Positions 3,554-56,397 of a DNA stretch of 64,000 nucleotides are shown one piece after another. Location: contig CALQJI020000014.1 in NCBI GenBank assembly GCA_943330855.2, positions 1 through 64,000 on the forward strand. Direction: 5' to 3'. This DNA is from Klebsiella pneumoniae (lineage in GTDB: Bacteria > Verrucomicrobiota > Verrucomicrobiia > Limisphaerales > SXTU01). Made by a program: the position numbers and the translations under genes. Within the stretch, counting starts at the first letter, position 1. Each line of letters starts with the position of its first letter. The notes under the pieces were generated by a model. The model was not told where the DNA came from and ran no database searches. It worked only from the letters and a program-made list of their open reading frames with translations.

Positions 3554-5674
3554 ATGAGCACGCGCAACTTCCTCCTCCTCGGTGCGGCTTTGCTTTCACT
3601 CGCGACCCTCCCGGTCGCCCGCGCACAAGTCGCCCCGCCGCCGCCGCCGAGCATCACGAACCTCACGCTCATCGGCAGTCAACGCGGGCTGCGCTGGACG
3701 CCGTTCCCCGCCGCGCAGAGTTTCAAGGTCTTCAGCACGACGGACCTGGGCCTGCCCTTCACCGAGGACGCCAACGGCGCAGTCAGCGGCTACTCGTGGA
3801 CCGGCACGAACTCCAGTTCCGCGCGCTTCTTCCGCCTCGACACCACGCCGCTGGACTCAAACGCGCTCGTCACCGCCACGGTGCTCAATCGCCTCGCCTA
3901 CGGCCCCACGCCCGCGCTGCTGGACCGCTTCAAGACCAACGCGATTGCCCTCTACATCGCCGAGCAACTCGCGCCGGAGACGGTCCCGGAGACGGTGCCG
4001 AACCAGCACACGAACATCGCGTTCTTCGAGAGCCGGTTCGCCGCGCCCACCACGGCCATTCCTCTCAGCGCCACCACTGGCCCCGGCTCGGCGCAGGTGA
4101 GCGACCTCCGCGCTTGGTTCAAGCTGCGGGCCGTCGGCGCGGACCGGCAGTTGCTCGAAGTGCTGCTCCAGTTCCTCGACAACCACTTCGTCACGCAGCA
4201 CACGAAGACAATGGACTATTTTCAGTTTGCCTACGGCGACTTCACGCTGCGGAACCGCATCGCCACTGAGCTGGAGTATCGCGAACTCACCCGCTGGCGC
4301 ACCGCGCTGTTGAACCCCGCCGGCACGTTCAAAGACCTGCTCACCATCAGTTGCGAAAGCCCGGCAATGATTGTCTATCTCGACACCGTCAGCAGTCGCG
4401 GCGACGGCGGGCGCACGCCGAACGAGAACTTCTCCCGCGAAATCATGGAGCTCTTCAGCATGGGCGTGGACAACGGCTACGACCAAACCGACATCACCGA
4501 CATGTCCCACGCGTGGGCGGGCTGGACCGTGGAGATGTTCCCGACGAGCGAAGTCTTCAACCCGCTCGCGACGAAGACGACCACGCTGCTGTCGCCCACC
4601 GGCGGCGGCAACTACACGAACCTCGTGGGCTCGTGGGCCTTCTGCTACCGCACCGGCTACCACGGCGCGTCGCGCAGCATCTTCACGAACAAGTTCGTCC
4701 CCGCCCGCTTCGGCCCGCCGTGGACCACGCGGACTTACGCGAACGCCGCGCCCGGCTCCTACCAGCTCACGTTCCCCGCGCGCACGGGCACGAACGCGAT
4801 TCAGGACGGCTACGACATCATCGCGCAGCTCGCCGACCTGCCGTTCACGCAGGAGTTCATGAGCGTGAAACTCTGTCGGCTCTTCGTGCATGAGGACTTC
4901 GCGCACGGCTACGACTTCACCGCACCGCAACTCACGCCCGAGGCCGACCTCGTGCGCCAGTGCATGCTGGCCTGGGAGACGAACTCGCCGCGCGGCCAAG
5001 TGCGCAAGGTGCTCGAGGTCATCTTCAAGTCGGACCTGTTCCGCTCGCACACCGCCGCGTTCGCGAAGGTGAAGACGCCGCTCGAATACACCGTGAGCGC
5101 CCTCCGCGCGCTCCGTGTCAGCACGAACGGCACCGGCCTGCACGGCTCGTGGTCGGCGGACACAGATGGCACCGCGCTCGCCACGCCGCTCCAGCGCATG
5201 GGCGGCATGGTGCTCTTCGACCGCGCAGAGCCGGACGGCTACCCGGAGAGCGGCGCGGGCTGGATTAGCGCGGGCACGCTCGCCGAGCGCGCGCGCTGGA
5301 CGCAGTCGTTGCTCATCGCCAGCGGCCAGACGGGCCACAACGGTTCGCAGAGCGGCACCGGCAACGACGCGGGAAACTCCGTGACCTCGCCCGTGCGCCT
5401 GCTGTTCGCACGTCTGCCGTTGCTGGCCGACCAACAGAACGCCGCCAAGGTCGCCGACGTGTTCCTCGGTCTGCTCTTCCCCGGCGAAGGCGCGGCGAAC
5501 CTGAACCTCTACCGCACCGCCGCCATCAACTTCCTGAACACCAGCGACGATGGGTTGAGTGCGTCGCTCTTCAGCGCGCTCACCCCCAGCGCCACCGCGG
5601 CGAACGCCTACGACACGCGCGTCCGCGGCATGGTGGCGATGTTGATGACGATGCAACGGTTCCAAGAGCAATGA
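3554..5674 (+). CDS. DUF1800 family secreted protein
   Basis: 706 residues from ATG 3554, chosen because it gives a clean Sec signal peptide (MSTRNFLLLGAALLSLATL, then ARA-Q). The frame stays open upstream to 3425 but without signal-peptide character. The body matches the DUF1800 family (PF08811): a segment LVTATVLNRLAYGPTPALL, then NENFSREIMELFSMGVDNGY near the middle, which is the family's most conserved region, and a C-terminal region ending in a helix around MVAMLMTMQRF. The biochemical role of DUF1800 is not established; these genes are usually paired with DUF1501 genes, and one follows here after 89 nt. It is probably exported to the periplasm or surface. Confidence 0.9.
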   Translation: MSTRNFLLLGAALLSLATLPVARAQVAPPPPPSITNLTLIGSQRGLRWTPFPAAQSFKVFSTTDLGLPFTEDANGAVSGYSWTGTNSSSARFFRLDTTPLDSNALVTATVLNRLAYGPTPALLDRFKTNAIALYIAEQLAPETVPETVPNQHTNIAFFESRFAAPTTAIPLSATTGPGSAQVSDLRAWFKLRAVGADRQLLEVLLQFLDNHFVTQHTKTMDYFQFAYGDFTLRNRIATELEYRELTRWRTALLNPAGTFKDLLTISCESPAMIVYLDTVSSRGDGGRTPNENFSREIMELFSMGVDNGYDQTDITDMSHAWAGWTVEMFPTSEVFNPLATKTTTLLSPTGGGNYTNLVGSWAFCYRTGYHGASRSIFTNKFVPARFGPPWTTRTYANAAPGSYQLTFPARTGTNAIQDGYDIIAQLADLPFTQEFMSVKLCRLFVHEDFAHGYDFTAPQLTPEADLVRQCMLAWETNSPRGQVRKVLEVIFKSDLFRSHTAAFAKVKTPLEYTVSALRALRVSTNGTGLHGSWSADTDGTALATPLQRMGGMVLFDRAEPDGYPESGAGWISAGTLAERARWTQSLLIASGQTGHNGSQSGTGNDAGNSVTSPVRLLFARLPLLADQQNAAKVADVFLGLLFPGEGAANLNLYRTAAINFLNTSDDGLSASLFSALTPSATAANAYDTRVRGMVAMLMTMQRFQEQ

Positions 5675-8885: not shown

Positions 8886-11904
<3,019 letters not shown>

Positions 11905-19640: not shown

Positions 19641-22469
19641 TCAGAAGACAGTCAGGAACTCGTTCGCGTTGAACAGCGCGCGGCATAAGGCGGGCAGGCC
19701 GTGCGCTTGCACCAGCTTCACACTCGCAGCGAGTTCCTCCGCTGCTGGCTCGCGCGTGAAGATGAGTTGGAAGGCGCGCTTCACCTGAGCATCCGTCCCC
19801 TGCCCCCCCTCACGCTCGACGCGTTCAGCGAAGAACTGCGCCTGCTGCACGGCGAAGGGGCTATTCAACAAGTTCAGCGCCTGCAACGGCGTTGTGCTGC
19901 TCGTGCGCTTCGGCGTGACCTGCCCTGCGTCCGGGCAGTCGAACGCGCCGAAGGTGTTGTCCAACTCCGTGCGCGGCTTGGCCTGATAGACCAGGCGGCG
20001 AAACTCCGCCGGGCCGAAGTCCGCGCGTGAGTTGTAAACCTTCACGTAATTGCCGTTCGCCTCGAAGAGGTCGAAGCCCGGCCCGCCCATCGTGCGGTCG
20101 AGCTTGCCGCTGACGGCGAGCATCGAATCGCGGAGCGGCTCGGCTTCGAGGCGGCGCGCGGGGAAGTGCCAGAGGAGGCGGTTGCCACTGTCCAGTGTGG
20201 GGGCGCGTGCAAGAGTTGAACTCTTCAACCCTTCAACCAAACCGCCTTGCCGAAACGCCCCACTCGTCAGAATCAGCCGGTGTATGTGCTTCAACTTCCA
20301 ACCGCTCGACACCAGCTCGCTCGCCAGCCAGTCCAGCAACTCCGGGTGCGAGGGACGCCCGCCGTTCAAGCCAAAATCGCTCGGCGTATCCACCAAGCCG
20401 GTGCCGAAGTGGTAATGCCACAGCCGGTTCACGATGACCCGTGCGGTGAGCGGATGCTCCGGTGAGCCAAGCCACTTCGCGAGCGCGAGACGCCGCTCTT
20501 GGTCGGAAGCGTCCCCGGCCAGCGAAAGCTTCGGCCCGAACGAGGCCAGTGCCCCCGGCGCTATCTTCTCGCGCGGCTGCATCGGGTCGCCGCGATGCAT
20601 GCGGAACGTGTCGCTGGGCTTCACGAACCGGCCGGCATAAACCATCGGGAAGGTGCTCGCCGCGGTGAGGTCCGCCTCCAGCTTCTTACGCACGACGAGT
20701 AGTTCCGCGAGCTGCGCGGCATCGGCGGGTGGCAGCCCCTCCGCCGAGTAGGTGATGCCGCCCGGTGCCTTCGTGCTGAACGCGAGCCGGTCGTCCGAGC
20801 TTGCCACCGGCTGCCATGTCGCGCCGTCGCGCGAGACCTCGATGCGGTAGCGCGTGGCGAGGCGGTCGTTGTAGCGCGGCACGTTGTCGCGGTCGCGGCT
20901 CCACGCGACGCGGTCAATCATCTCGGCCTTCGCGAACTCGAGTTGCACCCAGCCCTTGCCGCGCTCGTTGGAAATCCAGCTCCGCTCGTTGCCGTATTGG
21001 CCGTCGTTGACGTGCTCCAGCTTGTGAATCGCGTAGCCCGGCAGCGTGCTGGAGGCGGTGGCCTTCGCGCCAGCGGTGGCCAGCGCCACGTTGCGCGGTG
21101 TGGCCTCGGCAGTGAACACCTCCAACTCGTCAACGCACGGCTCAAGCTGCGTTGTCTCGGCGATGGTGAACCGCAGGAACTTCGCCGTGACTGGGGCGAA
21201 GCGTTCGAGGTTCAAGCCGCGCGTGACCGGCGGACGACGGCTGACGGACGCGTTCGTGCTCGTCTGCGCGCGTGGTTCAAAGCGTTCCAACTGGCGCGTG
21301 ACAAGCGCGAGCTGCGCTTTCAAAGCATCCGCCTTCGCCGTCAGCTCGGCGTAATTCGCTGGCTTCACCGCGCGTTCGCCGTGCTGCACGCCCGCGAAGC
21401 ACGCGACCACCGCGTAGTAGTCCGTCATCGCGATGGGGTCGAACTTGTGGTTGTGGCAGCGCGCGCAGTGGAGCGTGAGGCCGAGGAACGCGCTCGCGGT
21501 CGTGGCGGCGAAGTCGTTCAAGTCCTCCGCGCGCTGGTTCGCCGTGAGCACCGGGTCGGGGGACTTCACGATGTCCGTCGAGCCACCGACGATGAAGCCC
21601 GTGGCCGCGTCCACACCGAACGCGTCACCGGCAAGCTGCTCGGCGATGAAGCGGTCGTAAGGCATGTCGCTGTTGAAGGCGCGGATGACCCAGTCGCGGT
21701 AAGGCCAGGCGTTCTTGCGCGTGCCGTTAGTCTCGTAGCCATTGCTCTCCGCGAAGCGCACCACGTCCAGCCAGTGGCGGCCCCAGCGCTCGCCGAAGTG
21801 CGGCGAGGCGAGCAGGCGGTCAACGAGCTTGCCGATTGCCGATGGCCGATGGCCGATTTGGAACTCGCGCTCGAACGCCGCGACTTCCTCCGGCGTTGGC
21901 GGCAGGCCGATGGTGGTGAAGTAGAGCCGCCGGATGAGCGTGCGCGCGTCGGCGGGAGAGGAGAAGGCGAGTCCCTTCTCCGCGAGCTTCGCAGTAAGGA
22001 ACGCATCGATGGGGTGACCGACCGCTGACCGCTGACCGCTGACCGCTCTCACCGGCTGCCACGCCCAGTGCTTCGCGGACGTGCCAGAGCCGTCCTCCGG
22101 CCACTTCGCCCCTTGGTCAATCCACGCGCGGAGCAGGCTGATTTGCTCGGTGGAGAGCCGTTCGCCTTTCGGCGGCATCAACAGGTCTTTGTCCAAACCA
22201 GCAACGAAACGAATGAGCGGACTCTCCGCGCTCTGGCCAGGTAGGATGTCCGGCGCGTGCGAGTCGCCGCCCTTGAGCGCGTCGGCTTTCCGGTCGAGCC
22301 GGAGCTGGCCCTTTTGCTTCTCGGGGCCGTGGCAGGAGTAACAGTGCCGGGCGAAGAGCGGCTGAACATCGCGCGCAAAATCCACCGGGCGCGGGGCGGC
22401 AGGCGGCAGCTCGGCAGCGACGGCGGTCCAGCTCGCGGCGACAAAGACAATGAGGCGGCACAAGTTCAT
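19641..22469 (-). CDS. PSD1 and planctomycete-cytochrome domain protein with discoidin-like region
   Basis: 942 residues with a signal peptide (MNLCRLIVFVAASWTAVAA). The cytochrome domain has CYSCH at residues 43-47 and LLMPPKGERLS after it. DUF1549 starts at HPIDAFLTAKL, with TLIRRLYFTTIGLPPTPEEV and the second CxxCH in HCARCHNHKFDPI. The central region resembles an F5/8C (discoidin) carbohydrate-binding fold: ATASSTLPGYAIHKLEHVND, GKGWVQLEFAKAEMIDRVAW, RYRIEVSRDGATWQPV. DUF1553 closes the protein (RVIVNRLWHYHFGTGLVDTP, PSHPELLDWLASEL, NANEFLTVF). The discoidin-like part hints at a polysaccharide target; this is an inference. Three repeat arrays at 22024-22044, 21831-21858 and 20223-20238 correspond in protein position to those in the first PSD1 gene. 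Confidence 0.93.
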   Translation of the reverse strand: MNLCRLIVFVAASWTAVAAELPPAAPRPVDFARDVQPLFARHCYSCHGPEKQKGQLRLDRKADALKGGDSHAPDILPGQSAESPLIRFVAGLDKDLLMPPKGERLSTEQISLLRAWIDQGAKWPEDGSGTSAKHWAWQPVRAVSGQRSAVGHPIDAFLTAKLAEKGLAFSSPADARTLIRRLYFTTIGLPPTPEEVAAFEREFQIGHRPSAIGKLVDRLLASPHFGERWGRHWLDVVRFAESNGYETNGTRKNAWPYRDWVIRAFNSDMPYDRFIAEQLAGDAFGVDAATGFIVGGSTDIVKSPDPVLTANQRAEDLNDFAATTASAFLGLTLHCARCHNHKFDPIAMTDYYAVVACFAGVQHGERAVKPANYAELTAKADALKAQLALVTRQLERFEPRAQTSTNASVSRRPPVTRGLNLERFAPVTAKFLRFTIAETTQLEPCVDELEVFTAEATPRNVALATAGAKATASSTLPGYAIHKLEHVNDGQYGNERSWISNERGKGWVQLEFAKAEMIDRVAWSRDRDNVPRYNDRLATRYRIEVSRDGATWQPVASSDDRLAFSTKAPGGITYSAEGLPPADAAQLAELLVVRKKLEADLTAASTFPMVYAGRFVKPSDTFRMHRGDPMQPREKIAPGALASFGPKLSLAGDASDQERRLALAKWLGSPEHPLTARVIVNRLWHYHFGTGLVDTPSDFGLNGGRPSHPELLDWLASELVSSGWKLKHIHRLILTSGAFRQGGLVEGLKSSTLARAPTLDSGNRLLWHFPARRLEAEPLRDSMLAVSGKLDRTMGGPGFDLFEANGNYVKVYNSRADFGPAEFRRLVYQAKPRTELDNTFGAFDCPDAGQVTPKRTSSTTPLQALNLLNSPFAVQQAQFFAERVEREGGQGTDAQVKRAFQLIFTREPAAEELAASVKLVQAHGLPALCRALFNANEFLTVF
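20223..20238. repeat. CTTCAACC octamer pair in PSD1 gene 2 (site 3)
   Basis: Two perfect octamers, flanked by a partly inverted GTTGAACT (20216-20223). On the coding strand they give GLVEGLKSS, between SGAFRQ and SGNRLLW, the same DUF1553 position that holds an octamer array of different sequence in PSD1 gene 1. Confidence 0.8.
21831..21858. repeat. AATCGGC heptamer array in PSD1 gene 2 (site 2)
   Basis: On the plus strand four heptamers (GCCGATT, GCCGATG, GCCGATG, GCCGATT), the complement of the AATCGGC array at 9530-9555. It encodes FQIGHRPSAIGKL at the homologous protein position. Confidence 0.95.
22024..22044. repeat. GGTCAGC heptamer array in PSD1 gene 2 (site 1)
   Basis: Three perfect copies of GCTGACC (complement of GGTCAGC), with partial copies on both sides. 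It encodes AVSGQRSAVG immediately before HPIDAF, matching site 1 of the paralogue. Confidence 0.95.
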
Positions 22470-25310: not shown

Positions 25311-25338
25311 GGCAAACGGCAAATGGCAAACGGCAAAC
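25311..25338. repeat. GGCAAAC heptamer array at the start of the glycosyltransferase gene
   Basis: Four heptamers GGCAAAC, GGCAAAT, GGCAAAC, GGCAAAC. In the minus direction they read GTTTGCC and could encode the first residues if translation began at 25329. A pyrimidine-only run follows at 25373-25399. Confidence 0.9.
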
Positions 25339-25408
25339 GGAGGGAACCCGATGTCCGGCGAGCTAGTCAGGACACCTTTTCCTTTTTTCTTTTTCCTTTT
25401 GCCTTGGT

Positions 25409-29473: not shown

Positions 29474-31327
29474 ATGCGCCCGAACCACCGAACCACCGCC
29501 GTCGTGCTCGCGCTCGTCGCGGTGGTCTTCGCCGTCTTCTTCCGCACACTGGAGTCGGGCTTCCTGCGCTGGGACGACGACATCAACGTCTTCGAGAACT
29601 CGCGCGTCCAAGGGCTGACCGCGGAGAACCTCCGCTGGATGTTCACCGACTTCGAGCAAGCCATCCGCTACAAGCCGCTCTCGTGGCTGGCGTGGGCGCT
29701 GGTGCATGAAGTGTTCGGACTGAACCCGTTCGGCTATCACCTCGCGAATGTCCTGCTGCACTGCGCGAATACAGTGCTGCTCTTTTTCCTGCTGCGCCGG
29801 CTCTTGAAATGCGGAGTGCGGAATGCGGAATGCGAAATGGAGAGTCCGGCGTGGCTGGATGTGTGCGCGGCGCTCGGCACGCTCCTCTGGGCTGTGCATC
29901 CGCTGCGCGTCGAGCCGGTCGCGTGGGTAACAGGATTGCCGTATCACCTCGCACTGTGCTTCGCACTGGTGGCCACGCTGCTCTACCTGCGTTCGCACGC
30001 CCCGGAGGCGGAGCTGTCCGCACGCCGCCGTGACTACTGGCTGTCCGTCGCCGCGTTCGCGCTGGCCGTGCTGTCGTATCCCATCGTGCTCGGCTACGTC
30101 GCCGCGCTGGTGGCGCTGGACTTCTTCCCGCTGCGGCGGTTCAAACGCGGCGACTCCGCGAGCCTCGTGGATGCCGCCGCGCGGAAGGTTTGGTTCGAGA
30201 AAGTCCCATTTCTTCTGCTCTCCGTGGTCCTTGTCGCGGGCACGGTCTATGGCCGCTTCTTCGTCACCGGCGACTGGTCCAAGCCGACGAACCTCGGGGA
30301 GTTCACCATGGTAGAACGCGCAATGCAGGCGTTCTACCTGTGGGCCTACTACGTCTGGAAATCCCTCGTGCCGCTGGACCTCGGCCCGTTCTACACCACG
30401 CTGCTCGGCAACCGCCCCTTCGCCGCCGCGTTCATCGCCAGCGCCCTCGCCGTGCTGGGCGTGACCGCGCTCCTGCTGGTGCGCTGGCGGCGCTGGCCGG
30501 CGGCGCTCGCGTTGTGGCTCGCGCACCTCGGGTTGCTCGTGCCCATGCTCGGTCTCACGGAGCGGCCGCACTATCCGCACGACCGCTACTCCATCCTGAA
30601 CGGCCTGCTGCTGGCCATCGCCGCCGCCGTGTTGCTGGGGCACGGACGCGACCGCCCTTGGCGACGCCCCGCACTGGTGGGCGCTGGGTTGCTCGCCGCG
30701 CTCTGCGTGTTCGCCAGCCACCACCAGGCACGCATCTGGAGGGACGACTTCGTGTTCTTCGAGGAGTTGCTGCGCCGCCTGCCGGCGACCAGCCATTACC
30801 GCTCGGTGGCTTTACTCAAGCTCGGCAACGCCCACGCCGACGCGGGCGACGACCCCAAGGCCGAAGCCTGCTACCGCGAAGCGCTGGCCATAGCCCCCGA
30901 CAGCGCCTTCGCGCAACTGCCCTACAACTTCGGCAACGTGCTGGCCCGCCAAGGCCGCTGGGCCGAGGCCGAGGCCGCCTACGCCAAGGCCGTCGCCGTC
31001 GCTCCCCATCACCTGGCCGCACGCAATAACTACGGCATCGCGCTGGCGCGGCAGGGGAAGTTTGAAGCCGCCTTCGCCCAGTTCGACGAGGCGCTCCGCC
31101 TCAAGCCGGACAGCGCGGACACCCACCTGAACTATGGCATCGCGCTCGCGGGCAAAGGCGACTTGAGCCGCGCTGTCGAGAGTTTGACCCGCGCCCTGCA
31201 ACTCAGCCCGCAGAACGCCGAGGCACACGCACAGTTGGCCGAGGTGTTGATGAAGCAAGGCAGGCCGGAACCAGCGCGGCAGCACGCGGCAGAAGCGGAA
31301 CGTTTGTGGAAAGCAGCCCCGCAGTAA
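29474..31327 (+). CDS. TMTC-like membrane glycosyltransferase-fold protein with C-terminal TPR repeats
   Basis: 617 residues. The N-terminal two thirds is a multi-pass membrane region whose first loop holds LRWDDDINVFENS (D34-D36), the acidic pair typical of GT-C enzymes. RYKPLSWLAWALVHEVFGLN and NPFGYHLANVLLHCANTVLL resemble eukaryotic TMTC/PMT-type O-mannosyltransferases. From about residue 442 TPR repeats follow: LGNAHADAGDDPKAEACYRE, NFGNVLARQGRWAEAEAAYA, NYGIALARQGKFEAAFAQFD, NYGIALAGKGDLSRAVESLT. The combination membrane GT-C plus TPR is known in eukaryotic TMTCs and many verrucomicrobial and planctomycete proteins annotated as O-GlcNAc transferase-like. A heptamer array is inserted in a loop (residues about 113-122). 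Catalysis is unproven. Confidence 0.82.
   Translation: MRPNHRTTAVVLALVAVVFAVFFRTLESGFLRWDDDINVFENSRVQGLTAENLRWMFTDFEQAIRYKPLSWLAWALVHEVFGLNPFGYHLANVLLHCANTVLLFFLLRRLLKCGVRNAECEMESPAWLDVCAALGTLLWAVHPLRVEPVAWVTGLPYHLALCFALVATLLYLRSHAPEAELSARRRDYWLSVAAFALAVLSYPIVLGYVAALVALDFFPLRRFKRGDSASLVDAAARKVWFEKVPFLLLSVVLVAGTVYGRFFVTGDWSKPTNLGEFTMVERAMQAFYLWAYYVWKSLVPLDLGPFYTTLLGNRPFAAAFIASALAVLGVTALLLVRWRRWPAALALWLAHLGLLVPMLGLTERPHYPHDRYSILNGLLLAIAAAVLLGHGRDRPWRRPALVGAGLLAALCVFASHHQARIWRDDFVFFEELLRRLPATSHYRSVALLKLGNAHADAGDDPKAEACYREALAIAPDSAFAQLPYNFGNVLARQGRWAEAEAAYAKAVAVAPHHLAARNNYGIALARQGKFEAAFAQFDEALRLKPDSADTHLNYGIALAGKGDLSRAVESLTRALQLSPQNAEAHAQLAEVLMKQGRPEPARQHAAEAERLWKAAPQ
29810..29837. repeat. TGCGGAA heptamer array inside the membrane/TPR gene
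   Basis: Four heptamers (TGCGGAG, TGCGGAA, TGCGGAA, TGCGAAA) in frame, encoding KCGVRNAECEM between the end of a membrane helix (FFLLRRLL) and the next helix region. Confidence 0.93.
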
Positions 31328-51942: not shown

Positions 51943-54900
51943 TCACTTCCCCGACTTGCCCAGCAGGAACGCCAACAGGTCATTCAGCTCCGCCGCCGTG
52001 AGCGCCTCGATGAAATTCGCGGGCATCAACGAAGTATCCGTCTCGCGGCGCTCTTTGACGGACTCTTTCGGCACGCGGGCCTCCTGACCATTCGCCAACG
52101 CGTAGATGAACGCGCCACCTTCCTCCCGCCGGTGCAGGCCGCTCAACGTCTCGCCGTCCTTCAGCACATAGACCGTGGTGCGGAACGCCTTGTCCACGTT
52201 CCGGTTCGGGTCCAGCACATCCTCCAGCAGCCGCTCCAGCCCCCGCCCGCCAATGCCGTCGAGCTGCGGTCCCACCAGCGCGCCCTTGCCCTCCAGTTGA
52301 TGGCAGGCGACGCATGCCTTGGCGAAGACCTCCGCCCCGCGCCCCGCGTTGGCTTGCTTGGCATCGAACCCGGCGCGCTTGGCTTCAATCATCTTGTGCA
52401 GCAGCACGTCGGCGGCGGGGAGGCCCTTCACCAGCGCGGCCAAACGCGCCGAGGCATCGCGCGCGGGGCTGGCCCGGAGGCGGTCGGTCAAGGTCCGGTC
52501 CTGCAAGAGCCGCGCGGCGATACGACCGGCCTCGGCGGCGGCGAGCAACTGCTCCGCCCCCGCCGCCGTGCTCACGAGCCCCGTGGCAAAGCGCGTCTGC
52601 AACCGCGTGGGCGCATTCGTCAGCGCGGCCACGACCACGGCCAAGCCGCGCGCCTCCGCCGCCTCGCCGAGCTGCGCCGCGAGTTCCGCGCGCAAGGTCT
52701 CCGGCTGGGCGGCATCGCGCACGAGCGGCTCGACCTGCGGGAGGGCGGCGGCGGCATTCAGCGCCAGCCACGCGCGCCCAGCAGCGGCGCGGACGGCGGC
52801 ATCCGTCGCCTCGGTGAAGAGCTTGGCCACCACCGGCTCCAGCGTCGCTAGCTTGAGCGACCGCGCCAGCTCCGCGCCGGCTTGCTGGCGGCGGGCGAGG
52901 GACTGGACCTCCCCCAAGGTCAGCTCCGGCAAGGCCGGGGCGAACCGCCCGAAGGCCAGCCAGGCATAGGCCTTCCCGTCATCGCCATCCGTCACCTCGA
53001 TGACGGCCCGCTTCCCGGCCACGTCGGCCAAGTCCCACGTAATCTTCTGCGCGATGTCGTTCCGGGGCACCTTGGCCTCGCGGACGACGCCCTTGGGCAA
53101 GGCTCCAACGGCTAGCGCGGCGGCGTAGGACAGTGGATCCCGCCTGTCCTTCCAATGAACAGCACCCGCTTGGGCGGAAGCTTCAGTCAGAGGGTCAGGC
53201 GAGACGCGCTGACCTACTTGTGCGGCAGCCAGACGGGTTGGAGTCTGTGAGATTCGAGCCAACTCGTCCTCTGGGAGGGTAGAATCGTCTTCCCGACATG
53301 CAGGAGCGTCCTCCCGGGGTGTAGAATCATCCAGCCGACGTGTAGAACCGTCTGCCCGACGTGTAGAATCGTCTGTCCAGCGTGTAGAATCGTCCCGCCG
53401 ACGTAGTGAATCGTCATCCCGACGAGGCTGGGGAGGCGATTCTACACGTCGGTCACTAGATTCTGCACGTCGGTGGGCTGATTCTACACGTCGGCCGTCC
53501 GTTTCAACACGTTGGTCACACGATTCTACCCGTTGGCCTCGTGGTTCAGCCTGATGGAGTGCGGCTTCTTCCTGTCTGGCTAGCAAAGCTACCTGAAGGT
53601 AGGCAGCTTCAGTCTGACGTGAGACGAATTCTCCCCCGCCCCGCCCCTCTCCCGCCCGAAGCGGGAGCGACGCAGCCCGTTTTGGTGACAATTCGGCCTC
53701 CCGGTGGCCGAGAGCGGGCGGGCACTCGCCTTCTCCCTTCCTCGGAGGAGGGGAGAAGGTGGCCGCAGGCCGGATGAGGGGTGCGGCCGCTTGCGCCGAT
53801 GCCCGTAACCCCTCACCCCAACCCTCTCCCCTCATCCGATGAAGGGAGAGGGAGTCGGAAGCAGTAGGACGCAGCGCAGCTTCGGCCTTCCCATTCTCCG
53901 AGACGAGGCGCAGGCGGACGTGGTTCTTGCCCCCAGCGGGCTGCCCCGGTGTGCCGTCGTGGCCGCTGAGGTAGAAGGCGAGTTGCTTCGGCAAGACGAA
54001 GACGGGCGAGCGCAGGACGCCGGTCAGGGTCTCGCCGTGCGGGAAGCTGGACATGAGGCGGGTCTTCTGGCCGTCGGCGCTGGTGCGCTCCTCGAAGGCG
54101 AAGGGATTGCGGCCCGGCTGGTCGGGGTTCAAAGGCACGTAGGTCCAAGCGGCTGACTGGGCGGCGGGGGCGAGGAGTTGTCCGGCGAGGTCGGTGCCCC
54201 AGGCGCGCAAGTCCGGTGGCAGCGCGCCGCCGCGAACGGTCAGGCCGTCGTGCATCGCCTTGAAGAGGGCGGCTTGGGTGTCGAGGTCGGCGGTGAATTG
54301 TTTGCGACCGATGGCGGCAAGTTTCGGCAGGTCGGCGTCCGGGGCGTAGCGGGCGGCGTGGGTGACGTAGCGGGCGAGGACTTCCGCTGGCTCGGTGTGG
54401 GTCTCGACGTGGCGGACGAGGAAGGTAGCGGCTTCGGCGTTAGTCAGGCTGGTGGCAATGGCGGCGAAGGCGCGGGCATCGGCGGGCGGGAGCGGCTCGC
54501 CGGAGAGCTTGGCGAAGGCGCCGGGCTGGCGGAGTTGCTCGCGAAGGGCCATGCGCAGGACGTGGGTGAGATGGGTGTCCTCGGCGGGGACGCGCTTCTG
54601 CAAGGCGAGGAGCGGAGGGAGGTTGTCGGGGTGAGGATTCGCGGCGAGGGCGTCCGCAGCGGCGCGGACGACGTGGGCGCTCATGTCGTTGAGGGCGGTG
54701 CGGAGGGCGGCGAGGGGCGCGGCGTTCACGCCGCTGGAGGCAAGGGATGCTCCGGGGCGTGAGGGCGCTTCTGCGGCCTGAAGGCCGCGCTGCGTGAGCA
54801 CGCGGGCGGCGTGGACGCGGATGGGTTCGTCGCGGTCGGTGAGCGCGCCGAGCAGGGTTTTGTCATCGAGCTGGCCGGCGCGTTGCAGGAGCCACAGGGC

Positions 54901-56397
54901 GGAGGTCATCAGCCCTTCACGGTTATCCTGCTGCCGGAAACGCCAGCTGCCTTGCGCGGCCTGGGTGAGGAGTCCGTCCTGGTTGGCATCGGGGCGCAGG
55001 GCGAGTTCCTCCCGGGCGAGGGCGCGACGGGTGGGGTTCTGGCCAAGGAGTTCGTTGAGCAGGGCGTCGCGACCCGCTCGCGTGAAGTCGGGGAGCCGCC
55101 GAGGTGCAGCGGCGGATTCCTTCGATGCGTCGTCGCCGGTCCGGCTCCTGGCCTCGGCGGCTCCTACGGGGGGAACGATGCGCCAGAGGCGGCCGCGGTC
55201 GCGGTCGCGCCCCGGATGCAGCAGCGGGACTTCGTAGTGGCCGATGATGCGGTTGTAGAAGTCCGCCACCCACAGGGCACCGTCGGGGCCGAATTGCATG
55301 TCCACGGGGCGGAACCAGGGGTCGTCGGTGCTGAGGAAGTCGGGCTTCTCCTTGCCCACGCTGGTGCTGCCGCGCCATTCGAGTTGGTCGCGGTTGATGC
55401 GGCTGGTGAGGACGTTCCCGATGAAGAGGTTGTCCTGAAACTCGGCGGGCCACGCGGGGTCGCTGATATGCACGATGCCGCCGATGGCGGTGCTGCCGTG
55501 CGAGTGCTGAATGGTCGTGGGCGCGAAGCCGAGGCCGTCGTGCGGGCGGCCGAAGCTCGGGTAGTGTGCGCCGCGCAGGAGTTGGTAGATGGGGGAGCTG
55601 TGGCAGTCGGCGGAGTAGAGGTTGCCCAGGGGGTCGAAGGCGAGGCCGAAGGGGTTGACCTGGCCGTGGGTCCAGTGTTCGACGCGGGAGCCGTCGAGGC
55701 GGAAGCGATAGACGTTGCCGGAGGGGAGGGAGATTTCGTGGCCGTCGCGGCCCGACACGCGGGATTGGTTGTTGAAGCCGTGGGTGGCGTAGATCCAGCC
55801 GTCGAGGCCACGGCGGAAGCTGGCTTGGTTCCCATGCGTGTCGCGGGAAAAGTCGAAGGGGCCGAGGAATTTCTCCTGCTTGTCGGCGACGCCGTCGCCA
55901 TCGGTGTCCTCGAAGAGCCAGATGTTGGGGATGGACCAGGCGAGGCATTTCCAGGTCATTTCCGATTTCCGATTTCCGATTTCCGATTTGGCGGGACTGC
56001 GGAAGGGGTAGATGCCGATGGGGATGTTGAGGTTGGTGGCGAAGGTGGTGATCTTGCGGGCGCGGCCATGGTCGTCGAAGTCGGAGAAGATGCGGATGGT
56101 GTCGCGGGCAAGGGCGGCGTTGGTCGCGGCAAAGGGGTATTCGCGCGACTCCGTGATCCAGAGGCGGCCGGCGGAGTCGAAGGCCATGTTCATCGGCTTG
56201 CGGAGGTCGGGTTCGGCGGCGACGAGCTGAATCTTGAAGCCGGGCGGGAGCTGAAAGGTTTTCTGTTGTTGCTCCGGCGAGAGCGGTTCGGTCACGCGCA
56301 CCCCCTCGGTGAAGAGCTTCGGCACGGCGGCGGCGTGGAGCTGCACGACGAGGACGAAGGCCAGCAGGCGGGACAGGGAGTGGAGCAGGAGCTTCAT
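51943..56397 (-). CDS. PVC-type membrane-bound dehydrogenase/HEAT/c-type cytochrome protein with repeat insertions
   Basis: 1484 residues with a signal peptide (MKLLLHSLSRLLAFVLVVQL). The N-terminal half is a beta-propeller dehydrogenase-like domain of the TIGR02604 kind (PPGFKIQLVAAEPDLRKPMN, GRLWITESREYPF, FGLAFDPLGNLYSADCHSSP, GPDGALWVADFYNRIIGHYE). A helical HEAT-like region follows, and the C-terminus has a TIGR02603-type cytochrome: CVACH at 1362-1366, GPQLDGIGGRG, LLEDVLDPNRNVD, LMPANFIEAL. Longer than typical relatives because of in-frame insertions: a CGGAAAT heptamer array (about 138-147), a palindrome (about 411-436), a REP-like palindrome (about 849-890) and a mirrored 21-mer array (about 952-1039). 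Probably an exported dehydrogenase passing electrons to its haem; substrate unknown. Confidence 0.88.
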   Translation of the reverse strand: MKLLLHSLSRLLAFVLVVQLHAAAVPKLFTEGVRVTEPLSPEQQQKTFQLPPGFKIQLVAAEPDLRKPMNMAFDSAGRLWITESREYPFAATNAALARDTIRIFSDFDDHGRARKITTFATNLNIPIGIYPFRSPAKSEIGNRKSEMTWKCLAWSIPNIWLFEDTDGDGVADKQEKFLGPFDFSRDTHGNQASFRRGLDGWIYATHGFNNQSRVSGRDGHEISLPSGNVYRFRLDGSRVEHWTHGQVNPFGLAFDPLGNLYSADCHSSPIYQLLRGAHYPSFGRPHDGLGFAPTTIQHSHGSTAIGGIVHISDPAWPAEFQDNLFIGNVLTSRINRDQLEWRGSTSVGKEKPDFLSTDDPWFRPVDMQFGPDGALWVADFYNRIIGHYEVPLLHPGRDRDRGRLWRIVPPVGAAEARSRTGDDASKESAAAPRRLPDFTRAGRDALLNELLGQNPTRRALAREELALRPDANQDGLLTQAAQGSWRFRQQDNREGLMTSALWLLQRAGQLDDKTLLGALTDRDEPIRVHAARVLTQRGLQAAEAPSRPGASLASSGVNAAPLAALRTALNDMSAHVVRAAADALAANPHPDNLPPLLALQKRVPAEDTHLTHVLRMALREQLRQPGAFAKLSGEPLPPADARAFAAIATSLTNAEAATFLVRHVETHTEPAEVLARYVTHAARYAPDADLPKLAAIGRKQFTADLDTQAALFKAMHDGLTVRGGALPPDLRAWGTDLAGQLLAPAAQSAAWTYVPLNPDQPGRNPFAFEERTSADGQKTRLMSSFPHGETLTGVLRSPVFVLPKQLAFYLSGHDGTPGQPAGGKNHVRLRLVSENGKAEAALRPTASDSLSLHRMRGEGWGEGLRASAQAAAPLIRPAATFSPPPRKGEGECPPALGHREAELSPKRAASLPLRAGEGRGGGEFVSRQTEAAYLQVALLARQEEAALHQAEPRGQRVESCDQRVETDGRRVESAHRRAESSDRRVESPPQPRRDDDSLRRRDDSTRWTDDSTRRADGSTRRLDDSTPREDAPACREDDSTLPEDELARISQTPTRLAAAQVGQRVSPDPLTEASAQAGAVHWKDRRDPLSYAAALAVGALPKGVVREAKVPRNDIAQKITWDLADVAGKRAVIEVTDGDDGKAYAWLAFGRFAPALPELTLGEVQSLARRQQAGAELARSLKLATLEPVVAKLFTEATDAAVRAAAGRAWLALNAAAALPQVEPLVRDAAQPETLRAELAAQLGEAAEARGLAVVVAALTNAPTRLQTRFATGLVSTAAGAEQLLAAAEAGRIAARLLQDRTLTDRLRASPARDASARLAALVKGLPAADVLLHKMIEAKRAGFDAKQANAGRGAEVFAKACVACHQLEGKGALVGPQLDGIGGRGLERLLEDVLDPNRNVDKAFRTTVYVLKDGETLSGLHRREEGGAFIYALANGQEARVPKESVKERRETDTSLMPANFIEALTAAELNDLLAFLLGKSGK
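53281..53542. repeat. Mirrored 21-mer array inside the cytochrome gene
   Basis: Seven degenerate 21-nt units of the type TAGAATCGTC (53281-53427), a 10-nt hinge, then five 21-nt units in the opposite orientation of the type GATTCTACACGTCGG (53438-53542). In frame, it encodes a block of heptapeptides: RRVESSD-like units first, then DDSTRRA-like units. No spacer/repeat structure as in CRISPR. Confidence 0.95.
53729..53852. repeat. Long REP-like palindrome, copy 4, in frame in the cytochrome gene
   Basis: Arms CCTTCTCCCTTCCTCGGAGG and CTCATCCGATGAAGGGAGAG; centre as in the intergenic copies. On the coding strand it reads DSLSLHRMRGEGWGEGLRAS, then AAAPLIRPAATFSPPPRKGE. Translated without stop codon. 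Confidence 0.92.
55092..55164. repeat. AGCCGCCGAGGT palindrome, in-frame copy
   Basis: GGAGCCGCCGAGGT (55092-55105) is mirrored with one mismatch at 55151-55164. Related to the intergenic palindrome at 15124-15213. Encodes GAAEARSRTGDDASKESAAA in the cytochrome protein. Confidence 0.85.
55958..55985. repeat. ATTTCCG heptamer array inside the cytochrome gene
   Basis: Four perfect copies of ATTTCCG (CGGAAAT on the coding strand), in frame, encoding KSEIGNRKSEM between AKSE and WKCLAWSIPN in a loop of the propeller. Confidence 0.95.

What the first reader, a model, noticed from the sequence alone, without database searches (positions are those of the whole stretch)
53281..53542. Mirrored 21-mer array translated as heptapeptide block in a cytochrome protein
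Seven 21-nt units run in one direction, a 10-nt hinge follows, then five units in the opposite direction. The two halves are reverse complements in type, so the DNA could fold into a large cruciform or RNA hairpin, yet the whole is translated as DDSTRR- and RRVES-like heptapeptides, giving alternating acidic and basic residues. The block sits between HEAT-like and cytochrome parts. I know of no standard element with this shape.
Basis: seen in the sequence. Interest (0 to 1): 0.88.

Follow-up and report, generated by a model that had tools for sequence, protein, structure and literature searches.

The report
Mirrored 21-bp DNA repeat array family
The odd repeat block inside this bacterial cytochrome gene is one copy of a previously unnamed kind of DNA repeat (two opposed runs of 21-base units on a rigid grid) that also sits between genes elsewhere in the same genome and in related species, so the DNA pattern matters and the peptide it encodes is probably a by-product.

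Summary
The array is real: 21-bp units (15-bp core CCGACGTGTAGAATC plus a 6-bp variable spacer), seven clear units forward, five clear plus two decayed reversed, and an older terminal unit at 53230. The protein reading is secondary. Two more arrays with the same core lie between genes in the same genome (contigs C10, C70). Three more, with drifted cores, occur in two congeners: one (G004) in the same loop of the same gene, two in G006. All six sit on the same grid: exact 21-bp period, last forward to first reverse core 40 bp, 92 of 94 scored units in register. Cores are conserved, spacers nearly random. Units facing each other across the dyad are no more alike than other units, and core changes show no codon bias, so a selected hairpin or heptapeptide is not supported. 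The layout fits helically phased, head-to-head sites for a DNA-binding protein (unidentified). Congeners without the block show that the protein does not need it. Its loop is a hot spot for several repeat types. No match in Rfam, plasmids, phages or viral contigs. Likely a new bacterial repeat family combining iteron-like phasing with foldback-like mirroring; function inferred, not shown.

The parts
53272..53418 (+). Forward arm: seven clear 21-nt units, each a 15-nt core (CCGACGTGTAGAATC type) followed by a 6-nt variable spacer
53419..53431 (.). Hinge of 13 nt (CCGAC GAG GCTGG) centred on the dyad at 53425; last forward core start to first reverse core start = 40 nt, the same in all six arrays
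53432..53578 (-). Reverse arm: five clear units (core starts 53438-53522) plus two decayed units (53543, 53564), same 21-nt register
53230..53250 (+). Terminal, old-type forward unit CAGACGGGTTGGAGT, in register two units out; matched by the terminal unit at the same end of the G004 array
53095..53907 (-). Whole in-frame insertion (about residues 831-1101) that several orthologues (G005, G007, G009, G039) lack; repeat hot spot
53634..53880 (.). Dispersed CCCTCACCC/CCCTCTCCC-type repeat next to the array; the same kind of repeat sits at this site in G002, G003 and G004
53126..53217 (.). Imperfect inverted repeat (GTAGGACAG...CTGACCTAC type) on the other side of the array; related element at the same site in G008
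51943..56397 (-). Host gene: PVC-type heme-binding CxxCH protein, 1484 aa (DUF7133 N-terminal, CxxCH cytochrome c C-terminal)

Best explanation
The block is one copy of a small family of dispersed DNA elements: two opposed runs of 21-bp units meeting head to head at a fixed distance. SHOWN: copies occur in two intergenic regions of the same genome and in two congeners, one of them at the same site of the same gene; period, core position and centre geometry are invariant while spacers and species cores drift; the host protein family exists without the block. INFERRED: the units are helically phased binding sites (21 bp = two turns of DNA) for a sequence-specific, probably cooperative DNA-binding protein that assembles on both arms facing the centre. 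The core changes in step at unlinked loci within a genome because every array tracks the same protein, or because units are copied between arrays. In this copy the element lies in a variable loop of a cytochrome protein, where a 21-bp period preserves the reading frame, so the gene tolerates a charged insert. The binding protein and its job (chromosome organisation, segregation, mobility or regulation) are unknown.
For: Same core and same 40-nt centre in three unlinked arrays, two of them intergenic. Three more arrays in G004 and G006 fit the same grid. A leave-one-array-out weight matrix peaks at offset 0 of the grid for 12 of 12 arms, with the runner-up offset negative in every arm. 92 of 94 units lie exactly on the 21-nt grid and no indel was needed, although spacers are nearly random. 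Core information 1.13 bits per column versus 0.40 in spacers, which uniform tandem duplication would not give. No extra pairing across the dyad and no codon-position bias. The terminal unit CAGACGGGT(T/A)GGA is shared between G000 and G004 at the same end while inner units carry different species cores. Orthologues without the block are otherwise intact.
Against: No binding protein was identified and no element-borne gene was seen. Only three copies were found in an 86% complete draft genome, few for a general chromosomal system. Many congeners lack detectable copies. 21 bp is also the commonest period of unrelated intergenic tandem arrays in this genome, so the spacing could come from how arrays form rather than from protein binding. 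The grids of the six arrays were partly fitted by eye before the register test. The unit counts come from metagenome assemblies.
Confidence: 0.5

Rival explanations
1. Neutral satellite-like DNA: a replication or repair process in this lineage makes tandem arrays with a 21-nt step, and a template switch at a short quasi-palindrome (CCGAC-NNN-GTCGG) made the mirrored half. No function; inner units turn over, outer ones decay.
For: About a dozen intergenic arrays with periods 21, 42 or 63 and unrelated cores in 2.05 Mb of the genome. Edge units of this array are decayed, inner ones closer to consensus. The C10 hinge is a perfect 5-bp stem with a 3-nt loop.
Against: Core and spacer columns differ strongly in conservation and indels are absent despite heavy substitution. 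Three unlinked loci share one core. Identical centre geometry in diverged species even where the hinge stem is lost.
Confidence: 0.22
2. A foldback-type non-autonomous transposon: the two arms are terminal inverted repeats made of tandem transposase-binding subrepeats, with almost no middle. It spread to a few loci, one inside the gene.
For: Architecture matches foldback elements, whose inverted repeats contain internal tandem repeats; in Galileo these hold extra transposase-binding sites (PMC4079207). Copies at unrelated loci, absence from orthologues.
Against: Outer ends are ragged rather than sharp, unit numbers differ (about 9+7, 10+7, 10+9), and no common terminus or target duplication could be defined. 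No autonomous copy found: same-core arrays only at three loci.
Confidence: 0.17
3. A selected cruciform or RNA hairpin, for example for mRNA stability or transcription control.
For: Strong predicted folding, z = -7.2 as RNA and -6.7 as DNA.
Against: In-register units are not more complementary than off-register ones, and the hinge stem is not conserved. A strong folding score follows automatically from mirrored cores.
Confidence: 0.06
4. A functional heptapeptide (charged DDSTRR / RRVES) repeat of the cytochrome protein.
For: The coding frame is the only open frame of six in this copy; in the insert-bearing orthologues examined the stretch is read through without stops.
Against: Intergenic copies, orthologues without it, and no third-position bias. 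An open frame is expected in any insertion that a working gene survives.
Confidence: 0.05

Closest known systems
Plasmid iterons (RK2, P1, F, R6K)
   Same: Short direct repeats of 17-22 bp; Rep binds cooperatively and cooperativity is lost when sites are separated by half a helical turn (PMC4980987)
   Different: Mirrored arms of 4-11 units on genomic contigs, one copy inside a gene; no Rep_3 (PF01051) initiator found in the genome and no plasmid match
Foldback transposons (Drosophila FB, Galileo, Tetris)
   Same: Inverted arms built of internal tandem repeats, few structurally variable copies (PMC4079207)
   Different: Eukaryotic; subrepeats of about 220 bp in Tetris; here 21-bp units with strict phase and a fixed centre, no defined ends or target duplications
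Rickettsia palindromic elements (RPE)
   Same: Repeats inserted in frame in unrelated protein genes and tolerated (PMC10969869)
   Different: RPEs are about 150-bp elements, mostly in genes and encoding a conserved peptide; this is a multi-unit phased array found mainly between genes
REP / BIME elements
   Same: Small dispersed, mostly extragenic repeats occurring in opposite orientations (PMC3733652)
   Different: REP units are themselves 20-40 bp palindromes; this core is not palindromic and each arm is uniform in direction
PARCELs
   Same: Tandem coding repeats with DNA dyad symmetry (PMC2996958)
   Different: PARCEL is a 25-residue protein motif kept as protein; here coding appears incidental

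Membership tests
Iteron array | Direct repeats spaced by whole helical turns | tested here: met
   92 of 94 units on an exact 21-nt grid
Iteron array | Cognate Rep initiator in the genome | tested here: not met
   No PF01051 match in the 86% complete genome; other initiator families not searched
Iteron array | Part of a replication origin | not tested
   No origin analysis; one copy lies inside a cytochrome gene and two lie between ordinary genes
Foldback transposon | Inverted arms made of tandem subrepeats | tested here: met
Foldback transposon | Defined ends with target-site duplication | tested here: inconclusive
   Ends ragged; the corresponding sites in relatives are too diverged or carry other repeats
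REP / BIME | Palindromic unit | tested here: not met
   Core CCGACGTGTAGAATC is not self-complementary
REP / BIME | REP-associated tyrosine transposase in the genome | tested here: inconclusive
   One Y1_Tnp gene over the cut-off on C18, on a different contig from the arrays; link untested
Rickettsia palindromic element | In-frame insertion in a protein gene | tested here: met
Rickettsia palindromic element | Element of about 150 bp, mostly inside genes | tested here: not met
   Multi-unit phased arrays of about 220-450 nt; two of three own copies intergenic
Known structured RNA | Match to an Rfam family | tested here: not met
   Only tRNAs in the window, nothing at the arrays

The most novel reading that the evidence does not exclude
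A chromosomal site system in bacteria: mirrored, helically phased 21-bp arrays bound by a dedicated protein, in which the site sequence evolves in concert at all arrays of a genome while the grid and centre geometry stay fixed across species, a bacterial counterpart of satellite or centromere co-evolution with its binding protein.
Probability: 0.25. Interest if true: 0.85.

Novelty: new variant of a known kind. Interest (0 to 1): 0.62.

Why it matters
It shows that what looks like a repeat domain of a protein is a DNA element caught inside a gene, and it describes a repeat family with a rigid geometry that can be tested directly: find the protein that reads it. If the cores really co-evolve across loci, it gives a simple bacterial case of concerted evolution of a site array with its reader.

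Tried and rejected
Protein repeat domain (rejected: intergenic copies, absent in orthologues, no codon bias). Selected hairpin (rejected: no extra pairing across the dyad). Structured RNA (no Rfam match). Plasmid, phage or viral origin (no match). Iteron origin with a Rep_3 initiator (none found). A single-pattern scan of the 84,980-species collection found only the G004 contig as a true array; the Acidobacteria, Armatimonadetes and Bacteroidales hits gave no period-21 signal and the Myxococcaceae hit is a single-direction repeat without a mirrored arm; the G079 hit in the order looks like a chance match. I did not run structure prediction: without an allowed alignment it would be weak.

Full report
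WHAT IS THERE. The region 53230-53578 holds a mirrored array of 21-nt units. Each unit is a 15-nt core (consensus CCGACGTGTAGAATC) followed by 6 variable bases. Seven clear units run forward (53272-53418), a 13-nt hinge follows (53419-53431), then five clear and two decayed units run in reverse (53432-53578). An old-type unit, CAGACGGGTTGGAGT, lies at 53230 on the same register. Lag-21 identity is 0.65 in each arm against at most 0.40 in 2000 shuffles and 0.53 for the best other stretch of the window at any lag 10-60.

THE GENE. The array lies in a 1484-aa gene on the minus strand (51943-56397) with DUF7133 and TIGR02604 at the N-terminus and a CxxCH cytochrome c domain at the C-terminus, a family NCBI calls PVC-type heme-binding CxxCH protein. 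Orthologues G005, G007, G009 and G039 join residue about 830 almost directly to about 1102, so some 270 residues are inserted here. The same loop carries other repeat types in congeners: CCCTCACCC-type DNA in G002 and G003, a GTAGG...CCTAC inverted repeat in G008, and in G004 a CCCTCACCC-type repeat plus another mirrored 21-nt array. No stop interrupts the insert in G000, G002, G008 or the parts of G003 and G004 that are assembled. The G003 and G004 contigs break within the insertion, as repeats often make assemblies do, so unit numbers are uncertain.

A DNA ELEMENT, NOT A PROTEIN REPEAT. Searching the own genome with the array found two more arrays with the same core, at C10 and C70. Both are intergenic: C10 lies between the 3' ends of two convergent genes, C70 between genes among other repeats. 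All three have forward units, then reverse units, with 40 nt from the last forward core start to the first reverse core start. Core deviations in the coding copy fall evenly on codon positions (9, 14, 12), so no amino-acid-level constraint is visible.

THE FAMILY. A pattern scan of 320 genomes of the order found true arrays only in the own genome and, with a related core, in G004. A broader model also points to G006, G003, G010, G017 and G206; of these only G006 could be read. G006 has two arrays with cores TCGACCGCTCGGAAT and CAGACGTGTTGGAGC; the second lies, like C10, between the orthologues of the same two convergent genes, though in a much longer interval. In all six arrays a weight matrix trained on the other five peaks at exactly the same grid position in both arms, 12 of 12, with the runner-up offset negative in every case. 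For G006 the dyads came from a scan that knows nothing of the core. 92 of 94 units sit on the 21-nt grid. Core columns carry 1.13 bits and spacer columns 0.40 in the three own arrays. The terminal unit CAGACGGGT(T/A)GGA is shared by G000 and G004 at the same end of the array in the same gene, while inner units carry species-specific cores; I infer an old array with internal turnover.

MECHANISM. Fixed 21-bp spacing without indels in heavily substituted non-coding DNA points to double-stranded DNA geometry, two helical turns, rather than RNA (inference). Units facing each other across the centre are not more alike in spacer (0.31 vs 0.34) or much in core (0.70 vs 0.67) than other unit pairs, so base-pairing of the arms is not what is kept, although the strand can fold. 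The best explanation is an array of phased, head-to-head sites for a sequence-specific protein. The protein is unknown, and so is the role. The main rivals are neutral satellite DNA and a foldback-type transposon.

CAUTION. Unrelated intergenic arrays with periods 21, 42 or 63 are common in this genome, so a 21-nt step may be partly a property of how arrays arise here. That weakens the argument from period alone, but not the shared core, the fixed centre or the core-spacer contrast.

NOVELTY. No match in Rfam, plasmids, phages or viral contigs, and paper searches in the open-access library gave no description of such arrays. In layout it combines iteron-like phasing (PMC4980987) with foldback-like mirroring (PMC4079207); by the tests made it cannot be filed as a member of either.

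Noticed in passing
Own genome: L137:6612-6780, L217:18222-18440, L220:17363-17590, L223:2463-2715, L230:5001-5232 (21 nt); L151:16404-16782, L232:1682-1934, L238:2034-2500 (42 nt): About a dozen intergenic tandem arrays with period 21 or 42 and unrelated cores in 2.05 Mb of the genome; apparently the dominant long period outside genes.
   Followed up: partly
L143:9299-9480: Another mirrored 21-nt array with an unrelated purine-rich core (ATAGCGGATAGAGGAGAGAGG), complementarity 0.64 about its dyad.
   Followed up: partly
L232:1682-1934 and L238:2034-2500: Two 42-nt arrays at separate loci share a palindromic core CCCCGATCGGGGA.
   Followed up: no
window 9341-9371, 9530-9555, 22020-22047, 25311-25340, 29808-29839, 55958-55989: Heptanucleotide runs of several different sequences; 7- and 8-nt runs recur through the genome.
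   Followed up: no
L115 (RFVF01000051.1): Public MAG WB5_2B_004 labelled Proteobacteria holds an orthologue of this PVC-type gene and appears to be G004, placed in the window's genus; the public label is probably wrong.
   Followed up: partly
L070:4200-4380 and 4880-4960: GTAGTCGCAGGCTTCAGCCTGCG-type palindromes flank the C70 array; the type is frequent (48 motif hits in 2.05 Mb).
   Followed up: partly
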